Below are positions 28,843 to 36,665 of a DNA stretch of 64,000 nt, in pieces. The stretch covers positions 1 to 64,000 of the forward strand of contig CAMBFI010000009.1 in the NCBI GenBank assembly GCA_945865935.1. Direction: 5' to 3'. The notes below the pieces were generated by a model. It ran no database searches, had not been told where the DNA came from, and worked only from the letters and a program-made list of their open reading frames with translations. The translations under genes were made by a program, and so were the position numbers. How positions within the stretch are numbered: the stretch's first letter is position 1; each line of letters begins with the position of its first letter. The DNA comes from Bordetella parapertussis (GTDB lineage: Bacteria > Pseudomonadota > Gammaproteobacteria > Burkholderiales > Burkholderiaceae_B).

Positions 28843-29148
28843 ATGAAACCTTCACGTCGCCAGTTCATCATTTATTCATCGGCTAGTTTGGCCGGACTCG
28901 GGTTAAGCGCACAAGCGCAAGCACAAGCCATGCTCGGCGAAGCAGAGCCGGCCGCAGCGGGTCTTGGCTACAAAGAAGCTGCAACGGCAGTCGACAAAGC
29001 AAAATTTCCAAAATATGCTGCAGGTCAGGTTTGCACCAACTGCCAACTCTATGTCGCCAAATCAGCCAATGCAGGCACCTGTGCAATCTTCCCAGGCAAG
29101 CTGGTCGCAGGCCCTGGCTGGTGTAACGCCTGGGTTAAAAAAGCCTAA
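28843..29148 (+). CDS. High-potential iron-sulfur protein (HiPIP)
   Basis: Periplasmic 4Fe-4S electron carrier of 101 residues. The N terminus has a twin-arginine signal (SRRQFIIY) ending in an Ala/Gln-rich stretch. Four cluster Cys are at 64 and 67 (CTNC), 80 and 94, with the typical C-terminal PGWCNAWVKK. HiPIPs of this size serve as soluble electron donors to oxidases or photosynthetic centres in proteobacteria; here the partner is unknown, although a bd-type oxidase lies elsewhere in the window. Followed after 16 bases by a Rap1a-like gene. Confidence 0.92.
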   Translation: MKPSRRQFIIYSSASLAGLGLSAQAQAQAMLGEAEPAAAGLGYKEAATAVDKAKFPKYAAGQVCTNCQLYVAKSANAGTCAIFPGKLVAGPGWCNAWVKKA

Positions 29149-29164
29149 CTCACTGGAGAAAACA

Positions 29165-29536
29165 TTGAACAAGCACCTCACAGTACTTGGGCTTTGTTTT
29201 GGTATCGCCGGCATCGCGCCGGCGATGGCACAACAGGCCCCCAAAGCATCGACCACGACAGAACAGTATGTCGCCTACTGCAACAACAAGAGCGATATCG
29301 CTGCTCAAAACTTTTGTCATGGTTTTGGTCAGGGGGTCTACGAAACATACGTCGTGAGTCGTCATCCAAAAAATGCGCCTCACTTCGTCTGCTTACAGCC
29401 TGCGGGCGCATCACGGCAGCAATACATTGATGGTTTTGTGAAGTGGACTGCGGCCAATGCCCGCTTTAACCAGTTATCAGCCGCAGACACCATCTTGCGT
29501 TATCTAGGCGAAACGTATCCCTGCAAGCGTGGCTAA
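29165..29536 (+). CDS. Rap1a/Tai-like secreted protein (TTG start)
   Basis: Exported protein of 123 residues. I place the start at the TTG codon at 29165, six bases after GGAG, which gives a signal peptide (NKHLTVLGLCFGIAGIAPAMA) directly before the mature QQAPKAS; an ATG-only reading from 28964 would run through the HiPIP gene in another frame. The mature part has a pattern of four Cys (AYCNN, NFCHGF, FVCLQPAG, YPC) typical of the Rap1a/Tai family. Known members are immunity proteins to peptidoglycan-cleaving type VI effectors, but many relatives occur without an effector, and none is seen here. Confidence 0.72.
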   Translation: MNKHLTVLGLCFGIAGIAPAMAQQAPKASTTTEQYVAYCNNKSDIAAQNFCHGFGQGVYETYVVSRHPKNAPHFVCLQPAGASRQQYIDGFVKWTAANARFNQLSAADTILRYLGETYPCKRG

Positions 29537-29861: not shown

Positions 29862-29892
29862 TAAAAAGCCTCGGATTTTCTGAGGCTTTTTT
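29862..29892. terminator. Strong bidirectional rho-independent terminator
   Basis: AAAAAGCCTC (29863-29872) and GAGGCTTTTT (29882-29891) form a 10-base perfect stem with T runs on both strands. It ends the glycine-zipper gene on the plus strand and the fatty-acid-synthase-like operon on the minus strand, and so marks the border of that operon. Confidence 0.85.
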
Positions 29893-29912
29893 GTATTCGG
29901 TGCTTTGTTTAT

Positions 29913-31136
29913 TCAGCGCTTTTTGCGAGGTGCTTGCGTTTTCCAACGACGGTGGACCCACCACCACTGCTCAGGGTGCCTGACAATCAATAACTCAAGC
30001 GCTTGGTTGTAGGCTCGGGTGTTGCGCTGAATCTCCGCGCCAACATCCTCATCAATGATTGGCGTTAATGCCGGCAAGAACTCCAGTACGTGTGTGCCGT
30101 CAGGCTCACGCCACGAACAAGCGGGTATCACTGGCGCACCGGTAGCCAACGCAATGACCGCCATACTTTTATACGTTCCGGCTGCATGATCAAAGAACTC
30201 AACAGGGATACCCTCTGGGCGGCGCGCATATTGGTCAAAGGGAAACACTACTGCGTCTCCACCCTCAATCGTCTGGACAATTTCTTCCAGAGATCCACGA
30301 CGCCCCACCACACCAAAGCCTGCATCATTAAAGCGTCGGGTCAAAAAATCACTTAACCACCGCGGCTTGATTGGGCGACGCAAGAAATGAAAATGACCTT
30401 TGACTTGCGGGAAATGCTCAACACCTGCAACGGTCGAGACTTCAAAGTTTCCGAAATGCCCGGTCAAAATCAATAGGCCTTTTCCTGCCTCGAAGGCCTC
30501 AATCATGGGTGGTACGCCTAAAACACGCACCATGTTTTTCTTTTGCTCACTAGTGAGGAATCTGAATTTGATCAGTTCGGTCAGTAAAGACCAGAGGTGC
30601 CCGTAGTGCGCTTGAGCAAGCTTCTCGATTTGTGGGGAGTCTACTTTGCCGCCATACACACGCCCGAGATTCTCTAAGATCACACGACGACGATAAGGCA
30701 AGCACCGATAAATAAATTTTCCCGCCCAACTAGGCGCGATCACTTTAGGCACACGCAGCGCGACGGCTGTTGCGGTCGTCTGCGTGTGCGTCAGCGATAT
30801 TTTTATTTCAGCGACTAAATGCCTGCCTAACACGATCTCAGCCGTAGGGGTCACTTCAATATGTGGGGCGCCATACTCGTCACGACGTACGGAAAAATCC
30901 ATCGCCGTGATGGTATTGAGTGCGGTCTCAGAGGCAAAGAGCTTCAGACACGCCTCTTTTGCGGCGAACCTCGCGGCAAGGCTTGCCAAACGACCAGACC
31001 CTGCACCCGCGTCAGCGATCTCTGTTGCAGAGAACAGCTTCTCAAGGTCGTCAGGCATTGCCTCGACGAGGCGCGCAATACGGGAAATTTCGACCGTGTC
31101 GACCGCACAACCGTCGGGAAGTCTATGTTCAATCAC
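29913..31136 (-). CDS. Fused holo-ACP synthase (AcpS-like) and LpxL/HtrB-type acyltransferase
   Basis: Two-domain protein of 407 residues when started at the GTG at 31136, 14 bases after the upstream stop; a longer ATG reading from 31268 would overlap the ketosynthase-like gene by over 100 bases. Residues 1-130 are AcpS-like: AVDTVEISRI with the metal Asp13, and RFAAKEACLKLF with Glu61. Residues about 131-407 are an LpxL/HtrB-like acyltransferase with the H-x4-E motif HFGNFE (His227, Glu232). The reading frame is open through the junction. It would load phosphopantetheine onto a carrier and transfer an acyl chain to a lipid or other acceptor at the membrane. Last gene of the cluster. Confidence 0.83.
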   Translation of the reverse strand: MIEHRLPDGCAVDTVEISRIARLVEAMPDDLEKLFSATEIADAGAGSGRLASLAARFAAKEACLKLFASETALNTITAMDFSVRRDEYGAPHIEVTPTAEIVLGRHLVAEIKISLTHTQTTATAVALRVPKVIAPSWAGKFIYRCLPYRRRVILENLGRVYGGKVDSPQIEKLAQAHYGHLWSLLTELIKFRFLTSEQKKNMVRVLGVPPMIEAFEAGKGLLILTGHFGNFEVSTVAGVEHFPQVKGHFHFLRRPIKPRWLSDFLTRRFNDAGFGVVGRRGSLEEIVQTIEGGDAVVFPFDQYARRPEGIPVEFFDHAAGTYKSMAVIALATGAPVIPACSWREPDGTHVLEFLPALTPIIDEDVGAEIQRNTRAYNQALELLIVRHPEQWWWVHRRWKTQAPRKKR

Positions 31137-31150
31137 TGCGTCAGCCGAAG

Positions 31151-32422
31151 TTAGCGGACTGCACGCAGCAACACTGCGGCGTTGGTGCCAGCAAAACCTC
31201 TGCACAACACGAGGACGACATCGCTGCGCGTTGGACGCGTTTGCTGTGTGACGTTCAGACCGGCGCATGACGGTGCCAACTGCCCAAGGCTTGCAACACC
31301 AGGCACGACACCACGCCGCGCCGCCTCAAGGCCAATCGCAATATCAACCAAGCCAGACGAAGCAAACAAGTGCCCGATCGACCATTTATTGGCGGTCACC
31401 GGAGGCATGTCTTGACCAAAGACTTTTCGCAACGCAGCGGCCTCAGAGGCATCTGATTGTTCGGTTCCGTTGCCGTGCGCCACGATCATTCCCACCTCGG
31501 CGGGCATCAGGCCCGCATCGCTCAAAGCGAGTTCGATCGCACGACTTAACCCGTCGCCGTCAGAGCGGATACAAAATAGGCCTTCACCCTCGGAGGCATC
31601 CCCACCGCCAAGGTACTCGCCCAGAATCGTCGCACCACGCTCTTTTGCACTCGCCTCGGTTTCGAGTACCAATGCGGCGGCACCTTCACCCAATAAACAG
31701 CCATCGTGGCGAGAATCAAAAGGACGCAAGACGTCTTTGGAGACCAAGCCAACACGATCGAGATAAAGCAAGGTTTGTGGCTCAATGGGTGCGTCGTGCG
31801 CGATGGCAACAACCCGCTGAGCATCGCCTTCGCGCAAGGCCCAAGCGCTTTCGACGACGGCAAGAATCCCGCTGGTTGTGTGGTTGGTAATACAACCGTT
31901 CGGACCCTTAAGCCGATTGCGAATGCTCACGTGACACAACACATTATTGGGTAAAGAGCGCAACAACCACATCGGGTTCACGGTATTCGAGAGCTCTTTA
32001 CCAAAGGTCTCAAGACTCTCGCCGCTTTCAGCCATCAAAGGAAAGAAGTCATAACTCACTTCGAACGCACCGCCACCAGACCCGACGTAGCAGCCTGTCT
32101 GATCTGCGTACTGGGCCGCAACGGATTCATCGAGCGCTTGTGTATACGCAGGCAATCCCGCCTGCTCGATCGCCTGCGTGCCGGCGTAAATACCAAATAC
32201 ATCAGAGCGGCGCACAAGCTTTAGTAATTTTCGGTCTCCGAGCAGTTTGCCGCCGTTGTAATCTAAGACCTCAGCCACTAGACCATTTGGCCATTTCTCG
32301 GTGTCCCAGCTTGCGCACGGCGCAAACATCGAACGACCCGCTAACAAGGTGTCGACGATGGCAGATGGATCAAACCCCGCTGCGCAAATGGCGCTATTTC
32401 CGGTGATGACGATTCGACTCAT
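31151..32422 (-). CDS. Ketosynthase-like protein with Cys-to-Thr change (chain-length-factor-like)
   Basis: Ketoacyl-synthase fold protein of 423 residues with start at 32422 (MSRIVITGNSAICAAG), preceded by AGGACGG; a start at 32485 would overlap the upstream gene. The two active-site His are present (VAHGNGT, His316; SIGHLF, His351), but the nucleophile position reads NHTTSG instead of TACASG, giving Thr182 in place of Cys. This is like the chain-length factor of polyketide or aryl-polyene systems, where the partner of a ketosynthase lacks the Cys. It follows the intact ketosynthase by five bases. A heterodimer is inferred. Confidence 0.82.
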   Translation of the reverse strand: MSRIVITGNSAICAAGFDPSAIVDTLLAGRSMFAPCASWDTEKWPNGLVAEVLDYNGGKLLGDRKLLKLVRRSDVFGIYAGTQAIEQAGLPAYTQALDESVAAQYADQTGCYVGSGGGAFEVSYDFFPLMAESGESLETFGKELSNTVNPMWLLRSLPNNVLCHVSIRNRLKGPNGCITNHTTSGILAVVESAWALREGDAQRVVAIAHDAPIEPQTLLYLDRVGLVSKDVLRPFDSRHDGCLLGEGAAALVLETEASAKERGATILGEYLGGGDASEGEGLFCIRSDGDGLSRAIELALSDAGLMPAEVGMIVAHGNGTEQSDASEAAALRKVFGQDMPPVTANKWSIGHLFASSGLVDIAIGLEAARRGVVPGVASLGQLAPSCAGLNVTQQTRPTRSDVVLVLCRGFAGTNAAVLLRAVR

Positions 32423-32427
32423 TTCAG

Positions 32428-33741
32428 TTACCGTCCTGCGGCGATCAGGGCCGCGGTTTCTTCGGGGTTTCGCAAGGCCAAGCAACTGTTGCTGCCGCCA
32501 AATCCTAGGGAATTGGACAAGGCCATGCCAATACGCGCCGCGCGCGGCACATCGCGCACAATATCCACATCACAGTCCGGATCTAATTGCTCGAGGTTGG
32601 CATTCGGAGGCATCAGGCTGTCACGAATCGCTAAAGCGCAGATGCCGGCCTCGACTGCGCCTGCGGCTGCAATCAAATGCCCCATCACACTCTTGGTTGA
32701 ACTGACACCCACTTCTTTAACGCGTCCCTCAAACACCTCGTTCACGGCCGCGCACTCGCTGCGATCATTCATCGGTGTGGAGGTGCCGTGTGCATTTAAA
32801 TAATCAATGTCGGTAGCAAGCGCGCCGGCATCGGCGATTGCACGGCGCATTGCTTGAATCGGACCATCGCCAGACGGGTGCGAATCGGTAATCCGATAAG
32901 AAGACAGAGAGTTGCCATCGCCAGCGAGTTCGGCATAGATTGTTGCGCCACGCTGAACGGCGCTATTCCACTCTTCGAGCACCAGAAAACCCGCCCCCTC
33001 TCCGAGCAAAAAGCCATTACGCGTCAGATCGAAGGGACGACTCGCACGCTCCGGATTGTCGTTATCCGGCGACACGGCTGACAACAGACAAAATCCTGAG
33101 AGCCCAACCGGCGAAATCATTGAATCAAAACCACCGGTGAGCACTCGGTCAGCCACACCTCTGCGAATCAAACGCAGCGCCGTACCAACCGCTTGCCCAC
33201 CCGACGCACACGCGGTATGAACGGTCGATGCATAGCCCCGAATACCAAACCGTCGCAACAATAACGAAATACCAGCCGTTGACAAACTGCGGCTAAACGC
33301 CATCACGTCGTTGGCGACGGGTTCCTCAAGAATACCGTTTGCCTGAAAATCACCCTCGGGGGCGGCCGCTTTTTGTATCGCCGCAATATCAGAATGCGCG
33401 ACCGTCATCATCCCCGCACCCACGACGCAACCCCAGCGTGTTGCATCTTGGTGGTTGGGACGAATGCCGGCGTCCGCAATCGCTTGATCCGCTGCAGCCA
33501 ACGCGAAACGATGCGCCCGGCTGGTGTACTTGAGTAACTTCAGATCGTCGATGGGTGGCAGACTATCAAAGCCTTTCACCTCCGCGGCGATGCGCGTAGA
33601 GAATCCTGAGGCATCAAACAACGTGATGGGCCCACCGCAACCTTTAGCAGCCTTGATGCGCGCCCATGTGGAGGCAACATCTAGCCCCGCGGGAGTCACG
33701 AGGCCAATACCTGTAATCGCTACGCGACGTCTTGCGGTCAT
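32428..33741 (-). CDS. Beta-ketoacyl-ACP synthase (KAS II-type, intact active site)
   Basis: Elongating ketosynthase of 437 residues. The Cys-His-His triad is intact: Cys178 in HTACASGG, His318 in NAHGTSTPMND and His355 in STKSVMGHL. The C-terminal NSLGFGGSNSCL is the usual end of the fold. It would condense malonyl-ACP with the growing chain on the local carrier protein. It overlaps the dehydratase gene upstream by four bases (ATGA) and precedes the Thr-containing ketosynthase-like protein, its likely partner. Confidence 0.9.
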   Translation of the reverse strand: MTARRRVAITGIGLVTPAGLDVASTWARIKAAKGCGGPITLFDASGFSTRIAAEVKGFDSLPPIDDLKLLKYTSRAHRFALAAADQAIADAGIRPNHQDATRWGCVVGAGMMTVAHSDIAAIQKAAAPEGDFQANGILEEPVANDVMAFSRSLSTAGISLLLRRFGIRGYASTVHTACASGGQAVGTALRLIRRGVADRVLTGGFDSMISPVGLSGFCLLSAVSPDNDNPERASRPFDLTRNGFLLGEGAGFLVLEEWNSAVQRGATIYAELAGDGNSLSSYRITDSHPSGDGPIQAMRRAIADAGALATDIDYLNAHGTSTPMNDRSECAAVNEVFEGRVKEVGVSSTKSVMGHLIAAAGAVEAGICALAIRDSLMPPNANLEQLDPDCDVDIVRDVPRAARIGMALSNSLGFGGSNSCLALRNPEETAALIAAGR

Positions 33742-34619
33742 GCGGCTTCTCCGGAGTCTGGCGCAAAAAACATTTTGGCACCAGCAATTGTGCGGCCATT
33801 CGCTGATGCGCCGACTTTAATCAAAATAGGTTCAAGATCCTCTTGGCTGGGACTGGCCTGTTCTGCAGACAAGACAAGCGAAGCGCCAGGCGCGGTGAAC
33901 GCCCTCACTTTGACGTTGGTAATGCGAGAGACTCGCACGGGGCCACCCGCGGCAGCTTCGGCCAAACGCTGAGCGAGCTGTTGCTGTGCATACAGTAACA
34001 AGGTGGCCGGATAAACCGGGCGCGAGGGAAAATGATCTTCAAAGAACGCAGCGACTTGCGGAACCGTCAAAGTGGCTTCCAGGCGGTAAGCGCGATCGGA
34101 GGGTCGGTCTGCGAGATCCGGCAACGGTACACCCGCAAACGCACCGGGAGGACGTCCAACCGTCTTGAGTAACTCGAAGTCGGCCGCCAGCGCGGCGGGC
34201 GCGTCAAACTCGTGGATATCGAGCATTGACCCTAACGTGTCCTGCAGTTCGAGTATCAGCCTTCCGTCAACCAGCGCACGGCCCTTGTAGGTAATCGACT
34301 CCGCGTCGCAGGATTCAATGTCGACTATCAGCTCAAGGGTATCGCCTGGCCTGGGCAGACTGTGCATCCGCGTATCGCCCGCCAGCGCAGCGACCGGTCT
34401 GTGCGTAAACCCCACAGACGACATCGCTACCCACGCCGCAAGCTGACCGATGGCTTCAGCCACCAGACTGACGGGGAAAAGCGAAACTGTAGGTGGGATG
34501 GTGTAGAGGCCGCTCACCCGCGCAACCCCTTCTATCTTGGTAATACGGTCGACGAACGAAAAAGCTGCGAAGCGACCGGTTGGCGAGGCCTTGGCGGCGC
34601 TCGCCCTGTCGAGAACCAT
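33738..34619 (-). CDS. Double-hotdog dehydratase-like protein
   Basis: Protein of 293 residues with two tandem FabZ/FabA-like hotdog domains (about 15-135 and 175-290). The C-terminal domain has the catalytic His196 in FEDHFPSRPVYPATL, but the acidic partner position reads Tyr210. The N-terminal domain has no such His but keeps the acidic residue, Glu55 in SLVAEAIGQLAA. In FabA/FabZ the active site is built across two hotdogs, His from one and Asp/Glu from the other, so the two domains here could form exactly one site. It would dehydrate 3-hydroxyacyl-ACP. Overlaps the neighbouring genes on both sides (TGATG with the ACP gene, ATGA with the ketosynthase). Confidence 0.82.
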   Translation of the reverse strand: MVLDRASAAKASPTGRFAAFSFVDRITKIEGVARVSGLYTIPPTVSLFPVSLVAEAIGQLAAWVAMSSVGFTHRPVAALAGDTRMHSLPRPGDTLELIVDIESCDAESITYKGRALVDGRLILELQDTLGSMLDIHEFDAPAALAADFELLKTVGRPPGAFAGVPLPDLADRPSDRAYRLEATLTVPQVAAFFEDHFPSRPVYPATLLLYAQQQLAQRLAEAAAGGPVRVSRITNVKVRAFTAPGASLVLSAEQASPSQEDLEPILIKVGASANGRTIAGAKMFFAPDSGEAA

Positions 34620-35047
34620 CAGCCAGCGGCTTGTGATGCACGCTGAGCGCGGATCACGAGCTTGCAGAAGGTTTCTGGCGTGTATAAACGTGCGATGTGA
34701 TCCACACGCATCGGAGTTTTAAAGCGCGAAGCGTCGATTTCAGACAAATATTCGCGCAGGCGAGCCAACCCTTTTTCAGTCAGGATGCCGTTTTCTTCGA
34801 AATCGGCCACCGACATGTCGCCGCGGACATCTTCAATGATCTTGCCACGGGGCACTTTGATTTTGAAGGCGCGCTCGAGGCGAAACACCATATCAAGGAA
34901 ATCGATCGATTCGGCATCCAGCCCTTCGATCAGCGAGACGTCGAGCTTGATGTCCTCGATATCGCAGCCTAGTGCATCGGCCATCGTTTTTTGGACGGTT
35001 GGAAAAACCGCCATAATTTCTTCTTTCGAGATGACTGCTTCAGCCAT
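34619..35047 (-). CDS. Acyl carrier protein with C-terminal extension
   Basis: Carrier protein of 142 residues. The phosphopantetheine Ser is Ser47 in GLDAESIDFLDMVFRLE, and the surrounding helices match ACP. A normal ACP is about 80 residues; this one has about 60 more at the C terminus, ending in a basic segment (HIARLYTPETFCKLVIRAQ), which may dock it to a partner. GGAG lies six bases before the start. It is separated from fabG by 98 bases that include a hairpin, and overlaps the dehydratase gene by one base. The fused AcpS domain in the last gene is its likely activator. Confidence 0.88.
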   Translation of the reverse strand: MAEAVISKEEIMAVFPTVQKTMADALGCDIEDIKLDVSLIEGLDAESIDFLDMVFRLERAFKIKVPRGKIIEDVRGDMSVADFEENGILTEKGLARLREYLSEIDASRFKTPMRVDHIARLYTPETFCKLVIRAQRASQAAG

Positions 35048-35114
35048 GATTTACTCCAAATGTGAGTCAACGCGCGTCATTTTAACCCAAGTATCAGGGA
35101 AACCCCGCCCCGAA

Positions 35115-35145
35115 GAGGCTGGGTCTCGAGTCGGAAACGAGCCTC
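35115..35145 (-). terminator. Possible hairpin between the ketoreductase and ACP genes
   Basis: GAGGCT (35115-35120) can pair with AGCCTC (35140-35145) directly after the ketoreductase stop. There is no clear T run on the minus strand. It may stabilise the upstream part of the message or attenuate it rather than end transcription. Confidence 0.3.
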
Positions 35146-35904
35146 CTACCCCATTTTAAAGCCACCATCCACGTACAGGACCTGTCCCGTCACATAACTA
35201 GCCAGATCGGAGACTAAAAAACCGACTGCATTCGCGATATCTTGCGCCTGCCCGTAGCGCTTGAGCAGAATGTTGCGCTTGACTTCATCATCAGCCAGAT
35301 CACGCACTTGCTGAGACATTTCGGTTTCAATCACCCCGGGCGCCACCGCATTCACCAAAATTTTGCGCGGTGCCAGCTCGACTGCCAGGGCACGCGTCAA
35401 GGCATCGACCGCCCCTTTGCTCGCCGCGTAATTAGCTTGCCCTCGGCCTGCCTTATTGCCAGCCACCGACGACAAATTCACAATACGGCCAGCCCGCTGA
35501 GACATCATGTAGGGAATCACCGGGCGCGTCACATTAAAGATGCCACCAACGTTGGTGTTGAGTACGTCAGCAATCTCGTCGTCCTCCATGGCGGCCATCA
35601 GGTTGTCACGCACGATCCCGGCGTTGTTCACCAAGATATCAATCCGCTCACAGCGCTCGGCCACGGCCTCAACCGCCGCCACGCACGCTGCAGAGTCGCT
35701 GACGTCAACCTGCATGGCAGTGGCTTGCCCGCCCGCAGCGCGCACGCCGGCTACGACCTCGTCCGCCGCAGCCTGATTGCCCCGATAAAAGAACGTCACG
35801 TTTGCGCCCTGGCCGGCTAATAGTTCGACAATCGCACGACCAATACCACGCGAGCCACCGGTGACGATTGCCACCTTGCCAGAAAGTCCTGATTCAAATG
35901 CCAT
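35146..35904 (-). CDS. fabG: 3-oxoacyl-ACP reductase (FabG type) of the second FAS cluster
   Basis: NADPH-dependent ketoreductase of 252 residues that would reduce 3-oxoacyl-ACP to 3-hydroxyacyl-ACP. The nucleotide site is VTGGSRGIG, the NNAG motif is at 93-96, and the catalytic Tyr159/Lys163 lie in QANYAASKGAVDALTR, all standard for FabG. It follows the enoyl reductase gene by five bases. Because the window does not show the housekeeping fab genes, I cannot say whether this is the only fabG in the genome, but its place in the cluster points to a dedicated role. Confidence 0.88.
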   Translation of the reverse strand: MAFESGLSGKVAIVTGGSRGIGRAIVELLAGQGANVTFFYRGNQAAADEVVAGVRAAGGQATAMQVDVSDSAACVAAVEAVAERCERIDILVNNAGIVRDNLMAAMEDDEIADVLNTNVGGIFNVTRPVIPYMMSQRAGRIVNLSSVAGNKAGRGQANYAASKGAVDALTRALAVELAPRKILVNAVAPGVIETEMSQQVRDLADDEVKRNILLKRYGQAQDIANAVGFLVSDLASYVTGQVLYVDGGFKMG

Positions 35905-35909
35905 CGTAA

Positions 35910-36665
35910 TCAGCCCGAAATCGCAAAGCCGCCATCCACCACCAGGGTGTGGCCATTAACCCAAGCAGCCTCGGGCAAACACAACAGATACACCGCGTCG
36001 GCAACGTTCGTCGGCAAAAGGCTTGGTCCGGCTGGCGTACGTGCGGCGAACTCAGACAAGACCTGATCGCGGTTTGGAAAGTGACTCAGTGCGTCAGTAT
36101 CCACAACGCCCGCCGACACCGTATTGACCCGAATACCGCGAGGACCGAGCTCTTGCGCAAGCGTGCGCACCAAAGACTCGAGCGCCGCTTTCGATGCGCC
36201 AATAAAACCGTAATGCGGCATCGCACGCTGCGCACCCAAACTGGACATGGCGATGATGCGCCCGCCGTCTTTCATGAGTGGAGCTGCATGCTGGGCGAGC
36301 AGATTGACTGCGAATGCATTGGTTTCGAGGCACCAGCGAAAGTGCTTCAGTGTCATATCCATCGCCGGCTTCAACACCCCTGAGGCCGCATTGCTAATGA
36401 CGATATCCAAGCGACCAAACTCTGTCGTGATGATTTCAAACATCTCGGTCACACTATCCGGGACACCCACGCTAGCTTGAATCGCGATGGCACGGCGGCC
36501 CATGGCGCGAGCCTCCGCACACACCGCTTCGGCCTCATCCGAACTGTTGTAGTAGTTGGCGATAATGTCACAGCCGGCCGAGGCTAGCTTTAAGGCACAC
36601 GCGCGACCAATGCCGCGAGCGGCTCCGGTGACTAAGGCAACTTTGCCGGAAAGGGGCAGACTCAT
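35910..36665 (-). CDS. Enoyl-ACP reductase-like SDR (FabL type, Tyr-x6-Lys)
   Basis: SDR-fold enzyme of 251 residues. The nucleotide site is VTGAARGIG. The catalytic Tyr and Lys are six residues apart (Tyr152 and Lys159 in HYGFIGASKAALESL), the spacing of FabI and FabL enoyl reductases and not of FabG, which has three. The NAASG motif and the SSLGAQRAMPHYG stretch also fit FabL. It would reduce the enoyl-ACP made by the dehydratase, which implies a saturated product. First gene of the minus-strand cluster, divergent from mmsA across about 150 bases. Confidence 0.82.
   Translation of the reverse strand: MSLPLSGKVALVTGAARGIGRACALKLASAGCDIIANYYNSSDEAEAVCAEARAMGRRAIAIQASVGVPDSVTEMFEIITTEFGRLDIVISNAASGVLKPAMDMTLKHFRWCLETNAFAVNLLAQHAAPLMKDGGRIIAMSSLGAQRAMPHYGFIGASKAALESLVRTLAQELGPRGIRVNTVSAGVVDTDALSHFPNRDQVLSEFAARTPAGPSLLPTNVADAVYLLCLPEAAWVNGHTLVVDGGFAISG

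What the first reader, a model, noticed from the sequence alone, without database searches (positions are those of the whole stretch)
29913..36665. A self-contained second type II fatty-acid-synthase cluster ending in a carrier-activating acyltransferase
Seven minus-strand genes encode an enoyl reductase (Y-x6-K), a ketoreductase, an extended ACP, a double-hotdog dehydratase, an intact ketosynthase, a Cys-less ketosynthase-like partner and a fused AcpS/LpxL-type protein. A strong bidirectional terminator bounds the set. Aryl-polyene clusters share the KS plus CLF-like pair, ACP and dehydratase but lack an enoyl reductase and make polyenes; here the reductase points to a saturated or partly saturated chain that the LpxL-like domain could attach to a lipid or sugar. 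No malonyl transferase, exporter or glycosyltransferase is present, so it must borrow malonyl-ACP supply and use a local acceptor. I know of no described product for this gene set.
Basis: partly seen in the sequence, partly recalled or inferred. Interest (0 to 1): 0.8.

Follow-up and report, generated by a model that had tools for sequence, protein, structure and literature searches.

The report
Likely long-chain lipid A synthesis operon
Seven adjacent genes in a freshwater bacterium encode a second, dedicated fatty-acid assembly line that most likely builds an unusually long fatty acid and attaches it to the lipid anchor of the outer membrane, a job known from root-nodule bacteria and reported lipids of Legionella but not yet tested in this bacterium.

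Summary
Seven minus-strand genes (29913-36665) encode a FabL-type enoyl reductase, a ketoreductase, a C-terminally extended ACP, a double-hotdog dehydratase, an intact ketosynthase, a Cys-to-Thr ketosynthase-like partner and an AcpS-LpxL fusion, closed by a real bidirectional terminator. It is a second set: the genome has plsX-fabH-fabD-fabG-acpP-fabF and a FabI-like reductase elsewhere. Close relatives are Zwartia, Sheuella and Jezberella. In the genus the fusion gene is in 30 of 32 genomes; another has the other six genes; one lacks the operon cleanly. The rest of the family mostly lacks it. Best reading: synthase and transferase for a very-long-chain (or otherwise special) lipid A acyl group. 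The product has not been seen; published Zwartia fatty-acid profiles list nothing above C18 but would probably miss it. New variant of a known kind: own ER and KR, and an AcpS-LpxL fusion whose AcpS half has decayed in some relatives.

The parts
35910..36665 (-). enoyl-ACP reductase, FabL type (Y-x6-K)
   Evidence: NF005975 334.7 bits, above cut-off 328; YGFIGASK
35146..35904 (-). 3-oxoacyl-ACP reductase, FabG-like
   Evidence: TIGR01830 268.9 bits, below its cut-off of 297.75; NF009466 247.8 bits, above its cut-off of 222
34619..35047 (-). acyl carrier protein, 142 aa, conserved C-terminal extension (about residues 80-142)
   Evidence: PF00550; extension conserved in A4; profile found in 9 of 369 class genomes, own included
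33738..34619 (-). double-hotdog 3-hydroxyacyl-ACP dehydratase; Glu55 in the N hotdog and His196 in the C hotdog
   Evidence: PF07977; both residues invariant in two alignments of 10 and 9 rows; AF2 model pLDDT 86
32428..33741 (-). 3-oxoacyl-ACP synthase, C-H-H-K intact
   Evidence: TIGR03150 415.3 bits, below its cut-off of 493.75; NF005589 397.6 bits, above 387; active site
31151..32422 (-). ketosynthase-like partner, catalytic Cys replaced by Thr, His/His/Lys kept
   Evidence: own clade 100/100
29913..31136 (-). AcpS (holo-ACP synthase) domain fused to an LpxL-type acyltransferase (HFGNFE); GTG start proposed
   Evidence: PF01648 + PF03279; H-x4-E; GTG codon at 31136, a Val codon at the aligned place in L034 and L047
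29864..29894 (.). bidirectional intrinsic terminator
   Evidence: fold z -5.2 / -4.8; sequence

Best explanation
[quoted passage not shown] The long ACP, charged by the fused AcpS domain or by a housekeeping PPTase, carries a chain that the KS/KS-like pair elongates with malonyl-ACP made by the housekeeping FabD. KR, the double-hotdog DH and the FabL-type ER reduce each unit to a saturated chain. The KS-like subunit acts as a chain-length partner (heterodimer assumed). The LpxL half moves the finished acyl group from the ACP to a lipid A secondary hydroxyl. Shown here: gene content, active-site residues, operon conservation, kinship with the Legionellales locus. Inferred: heterodimer, chain length above C20, lipid A as acceptor.
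For: Operon conserved as a unit: 30 of 32 genus genomes hold the fusion gene (28 in one piece, 2 in pieces on two contigs); G018 holds the other six genes, its contig ending inside KS-like; G001 lacks the whole operon with its flanking genes about 376 bp apart. The long ACP marks homologous clusters in 7 of 8 non-own hits in the class; 6 of those 8 genomes carry the T4BSS family PF11393, taken as a Legionellales marker. In family f126, 52 of 57 genomes have the ACP. L. pneumophila lpg0359 is a putative ACP and lpg0361/0362 putative KSs (PMC13200437); its lipid A carries 27-oxooctacosanoic and heptacosanedioic acids (PMC6927915); a paper says the VLCFA gene cluster is found in all bacteria that make VLCFA lipid A and names Legionella among such bacteria (PMC5613085, citing others). 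KS proteins of the betaproteobacterial and Legionellales clusters form one clade, 100/100; KS-like likewise; LpxL halves 100/99. Alphaproteobacterial acpXL-lpxXL loci have the same kinds of part, and their FabF2XL is also Cys-less in 8 of 8 read. Of the 11 best non-own matches of the DH profile in 398 phylum genomes, 8 are the dehydratase of such loci; the other 3 were not examined.
Against: No product data. Published Zwartia FAME tables list nothing above C18, though lipid A VLCFA is scarce and the standard library is, from recall, short. Among the papers listed, none proves that the Legionella locus makes its VLCFA (lists capped at 10). That f126 is Legionellaceae is inferred. The window ACP fails the AcpXL model (35.2 against 83 bits). 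KS kinship with alpha FabF1XL is only 85/94 with more references, and kinship of KS-like with FabF2XL is neither shown nor rejected. The LpxL tree cannot say whether alpha LpxXL or housekeeping LpxL is nearer. The LpxL half is below every NCBIfam LpxL cut-off shown.
Confidence: 0.6

Rival explanations
1. The operon makes a special acyl chain of ordinary length (C12-C20, perhaps branched or hydroxylated) for lipid A secondary acylation, not a VLCFA.
For: Chain length cannot be read from sequence; Zwartia FAME shows only C13-C18 acids; only one other LpxL-like gene is in the genome, so the fusion could be a regular second lipid A acyltransferase.
Against: A housekeeping FAS already supplies such chains; the nearest homologues outside the betaproteobacteria lie in a group inferred to make C27-C28 acids.
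Confidence: 0.2
2. The chain is transferred to another acceptor (phospholipid, aminolipid or glycolipid) instead of lipid A.
For: The LpxL half is below every NCBIfam LpxL cut-off shown; Zwartia has unidentified lipids and aminolipids.
Against: Best models are lipid A acyltransferases; the related rhizobial operon acts on lipid A.
Confidence: 0.13
3. An aryl-polyene-like or other polyketide pigment cluster.
For: KS plus Cys-less partner, ACP, DH and an acyltransferase are shared themes.
Against: The E. coli CFT073 locus has acyl-CoA synthetase, thioesterase, MMPL exporter, LolA-like protein, methyltransferase and GT2 genes, none in this set; its KSs fall apart from the window KS (ApeR, ApeO on a long branch); this set has a dedicated ER; Z. 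hollandica is described as unpigmented.
Confidence: 0.03

Closest known systems
Legionellales long-ACP cluster (L117-L122; in L. pneumophila probably lpg0359-lpg0363, partly recalled)
   Same: ER, long ACP, double-hotdog DH with the same split Glu/His, KS, Cys-less KS-like and LpxL in the same order; 26-64% identity
   Different: No AcpS domain on LpxL in the 4 complete ones; KR in 1 of 6 loci (L117); 2 of 6 are cut by contig ends before LpxL is complete; L122 has no ER on its contig; in L119 the ER is set apart
Rhizobial acpXL-fabZXL-fabF2XL-fabF1XL-(adh)-lpxXL VLCFA operon
   Same: ACP, dehydratase, KS, Cys-less KS and LpxL-type acyltransferase together; Cys-less partner (E in place of C)
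   Different: Short AcpXL, single-hotdog FabZ, KS pair in reverse order, no ER match in the ten regions read (a KR-like match in L132 and L134), a dehydrogenase instead, no AcpS fusion; protein identity 24-45%
Aryl-polyene clusters (E. coli CFT073)
   Same: KS plus chain-length-factor theme, ACP, DH, KR
   Different: Starter-activation and export genes, no ER annotated; different KS lineages

Membership tests
Legionellales-type long-ACP cluster | ACP with conserved C-terminal extension | tested here: met
   Profile A4 matches those ACPs over about positions 6-140 of 141, E 1e-42 to 3e-56
Legionellales-type long-ACP cluster | Gene order ACP-DH-KS-KSlike-LpxL | tested here: met
   6 of 6 Legionellales loci are consistent; L120 and L121 are cut by contig ends
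Legionellales-type long-ACP cluster | KS and KS-like in the same clades | tested here: met
   100/100 for both
Rhizobial acpXL-lpxXL operon | ACP of the AcpXL family (NF005079) | tested here: not met
   35.2 bits against cut-off 83. That NF005079 is AcpXL is inferred from its loci
Rhizobial acpXL-lpxXL operon | FabF1XL-type KS | tested here: inconclusive
   joined with FabF1XL at 96/90 with 5 references, 85/94 with 12
Rhizobial acpXL-lpxXL operon | Cys-less FabF2XL partner | tested here: inconclusive
   Cys-less in both but by different residues; common clade not rejected, p-AU 0.346
Rhizobial acpXL-lpxXL operon | Product is a C26-C30 acid on lipid A | not testable with these tools
   needs mass spectrometry
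Aryl-polyene cluster | Starter-activation ligase and exporter genes in the cluster | tested here: not met
   none among the seven genes or among the neighbours I labelled by eye; present in CFT073
Type II PKS KSalpha/CLF | KS-like lies inside the actinomycete CLF group | tested here: not met
   two CLFs form their own branch, 100/99, and KS-like its own, 100/100; a sister relation was not tested
FabL enoyl reductase | NCBIfam FabL score above cut-off and Y-x6-K | tested here: met
   334.7 against 328; YGFIGASK
LpxL-type acyltransferase | PF03279 and H-x4-D/E | tested here: met
   102.1 bits against 22.3; HFGNFE; but below all NCBIfam LpxL cut-offs shown
AcpS | PF01648 with catalytic Asp and Lys-Glu | tested here: met
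   30.1 bits against 25; TIGR00556 57.8 against 45.35; CAVDTVEI and FAAKEA in the window; lost in L043 and L044, Glu lost in L116. Which residues are catalytic is recalled; below the AcpS equivalog cut-offs shown

The most novel reading that the evidence does not exclude
A self-contained lipid A acyl machine that primes, charges, elongates and releases on its own carrier. The KS-like protein, which lost Cys but keeps His/His/Lys, decarboxylates malonyl-ACP to start the chain (no FabH needed); the double-hotdog DH keeps one composite site; and the AcpS-LpxL fusion charges the ACP and later takes the finished chain from that same ACP, with AcpS becoming a mere ACP dock in lineages where its catalytic residues are gone. 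It would give freshwater betaproteobacteria a membrane-spanning lipid A acyl chain.
Probability: 0.15. Interest if true: 0.7.

Novelty: new variant of a known kind. Interest (0 to 1): 0.5.

Why it matters
VLCFA-bearing lipid A is discussed in print as a trait of rhizobia, Brucella and Legionella that may aid intracellular life (PMC5613085, passages). An operon of this type in nearly every sampled genome of a freshwater genus would show that the trait is wider and not tied to intracellular life. The operon has its own ER and KR and fuses carrier activation to lipid transfer. Three Zwartia species are described from culture, so the prediction can be tested directly.

Tried and rejected
Aryl-polyene reading: rejected on gene content and KS trees. 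Type II PKS: the KS-like protein does not lie among the two actinomycete CLFs used. Only-fab-set reading (the finder's own refuter): rejected, canonical fab locus at G000:C3 and a FabI-like reductase at G000:C10, named by motif and not scanned. Plasmid collection: KS-like best identity in the 25 rows listed is 32.2%, and all 809 records are under 60%. PDB: the ACP and KS-like matches shown are generic ACPs and KSs, with 'specialized ACP' 2kw2/8f5i among the weak ACP hits. ACP structure model was poor (pLDDT 62.7) and not used. LpxL tree: with three groups and three long references it cannot place alpha LpxXL against housekeeping LpxL, so it is not used for that; the first version had wrong reading frames for L043 and L044 and was redone without the aryl-polyene acyltransferase. 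KS trees: 11 of 51 rows were left out to thin it; one search left out the same 11 and the long-branched ApeO and added 8 references. Literature: one search aimed at VLCFA in betaproteobacterial lipid A (218 papers held three of four terms, 10 listed, none on this by title); on the Legionella genes (43 papers, 10 listed; 1; 5; 14, 10 listed). This library lacks most subscription journals.
Full report
What is there. The window is the first 64 kb of contig 9 of a 3.25-Mb draft genome. At 29913-36665 seven minus-strand genes are packed with gaps of 5, 98, -1, -4, 5 and 14 nt: ER, KR, ACP, DH, KS, KS-like, AcpS-LpxL. Family scans support each assignment. The ER scores above the NCBIfam FabL cut-off and has Y-x6-K. 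The KS keeps Cys-His-His-Lys; the KS-like protein has Thr for Cys but keeps both His and the Lys. The DH is modelled as a double hotdog (pLDDT 86); the top Foldseek hits listed are mainly double-hotdog thioesterases and a FAS dehydratase model. Glu55 of the first hotdog and His196 of the second are invariant in the 10 rows of A3 and in the 9 rows of a second alignment that adds 6 Legionellales DHs, which suggests one composite FabZ-like site. The last gene joins an AcpS domain (Asp and Lys-Glu present) to an LpxL-type acyltransferase (HFGNFE). A bidirectional terminator lies at 29864-29894.

It is a second set. Contig 3 of the genome has plsX-fabH-fabD-fabG-acpP-fabF. A reductase that reads as FabI by motif is on contig 10 (not scanned). 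There are two other PPTase-family matches and one other LpxL-like gene.

Where it occurs. Titles of related records include Zwartia hollandica, Z. vadi, Z. panacis, Sheuella and Jezberella; 37 loci in all hold a KS-like relative. In the genus, 30 of 32 genomes hold the fusion gene (28 in one piece, 2 in pieces on two contigs). In-frame stops that the search counted in some of them lie at the natural C-terminal end in the four of five checked that have one. G018 holds the other six genes, its contig ending inside KS-like. G001 lacks the operon, with its neighbours ALDH and the 29144-29536 homologue about 376 bp apart, so the operon behaves as one unit. In the family, KS-like at over 60% identity is in 12 of 200 genomes: 10 of the genus and 2 of one other genus, G117 and G138. 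Among 20 regions fetched, 17 (one is the window) have all seven genes in order, 2 are cut by contig ends and 1 has no such cluster. Two further betaproteobacterial MAGs (L087, L090) and G629 (L116) also carry all seven.

The wider family. The ACP with its C-terminal extension was used as a profile: 9 of 369 genomes of the class match, own included. Seven of the 8 others have the cluster, two of them cut by contig ends; one (L123) has the ACP without the rest. Six of those 8 genomes carry the T4BSS protein PF11393, taken as a Legionellales marker; G629 and G844 do not. Three of the six belong to one family, f126, in which 52 of 57 sampled genomes have the long ACP. Two of the five misses are single-contig 500-kb genomes, which I recall as the size of the louse symbiont Legionella polyplacis. 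The f126 loci L118 and L119 lie within about 6 kb of genes that read, by eye, as rplQ, rpoA and rpsD. In L. pneumophila lpg0359 is a putative ACP and lpg0361/lpg0362 are putative ketosynthases (PMC13200437, two passages); that lpg0355 is rplQ and lpg0363 an acyltransferase is recalled. I therefore infer that f126 is Legionellaceae. L. pneumophila lipid A carries 27-oxooctacosanoic and heptacosanedioic acids (PMC6927915, passages).

Comparison with rhizobia. The characterised operon acpXL-fabZXL-fabF2XL-fabF1XL-adh-lpxXL makes and attaches a C26-C30 acid (PMC11901934 and PMC5613085, passages). NF005079, which I take as AcpXL, exceeds its cut-off in 21 of 249 phylum genomes, not in this one. Of ten such regions fetched, the ordered set ACP-DH-KSa-KSb is visible in L130-L133, L137 and L139; L134, L135, L136 and L138 show part of it in my ORF table. 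FabF2XL lacks Cys in all 8 sequences read (Glu at that place), and the five Legionellales KS-like proteins read have Ala or Gly. So a KS plus a Cys-less partner recurs. Kinship is weaker than the parallel: KS with FabF1XL is 96/90 with few references and 85/94 with more; KS-like with FabF2XL is neither shown nor rejected (p-AU 0.346). The non-own matches of the DH profile in 398 genomes cover one hotdog only. Of the 11 best, 8 lie in VLCFA loci (G371, G248, G491, G252, G509, G527, G363, G473; for G363 by closeness to its AcpXL hit, for G527 by closeness to the KS), and 3 (G569, G523, G259) were not examined.

How it most likely works. The ACP is charged by the fused AcpS or by a housekeeping PPTase. 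The KS/KS-like pair extends the chain with malonyl-ACP from housekeeping FabD; KR, DH and ER saturate it; the LpxL half transfers it to lipid A. The AcpS half is not essential to the system: in L043 and L044 its motifs are gone and in L116 the Glu is replaced, while the LpxL motif stays, and the four complete Legionellales LpxL proteins have no AcpS. It may then serve as an ACP dock (inference). Chain length and acceptor are inferred from kin.

Results against. Zwartia fatty-acid tables list only C13-C18 acids (PMC10535154, passages and table). The window ACP is not an AcpXL by its model; the LpxL half is below the NCBIfam LpxL cut-offs shown. The LpxL tree does not resolve alpha LpxXL against housekeeping LpxL. 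Among the papers listed, none proves the Legionella gene-product link.

Verdict. Real, ordinary in parts, unusual as a whole: a VLCFA-type lipid A operon variant with dedicated ER and KR and an AcpS-LpxL fusion, in a freshwater genus.

Noticed in passing
L073:10001-12264; L082:9953-12266; L089:2510-4506: A second, stand-alone KS-like gene (Ala at the Cys position in L073 and L082) is followed by a ~312-317 aa ORF, a fatty-acid desaturase (PF00487) in L073, away from the operon in some relatives.
   Followed up: partly
G000:C12:17867-25774 (L092:9868-17775): A 2635-aa ORF with a ketosynthase domain, followed by a 410-aa ORF, among ORFs that look like sulfotransferase and glycosyltransferase genes by eye.
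   Followed up: no
L117:3805-4866: A zinc alcohol dehydrogenase (PF08240, PF00107) lies next to the Legionellales cluster of G643, as a dehydrogenase does in the rhizobial operon.
   Followed up: no
L044:11146-12446: The KS-like gene of G117, a one-contig genome, matches in two pieces in different frames.
   Followed up: no
window:29593-29826: Between the terminator and the 29144-29536 ORF lies a short ORF that reads like a glycine-rich lipoprotein (by eye).
   Followed up: no
L064, L065, L085, L088, L070: Records titled as MAGs of Bordetella parapertussis or Candidatus Methylopumilus hold this operon's KS-like gene at 73-95% identity; the titles look like mislabelled bins.
   Followed up: no
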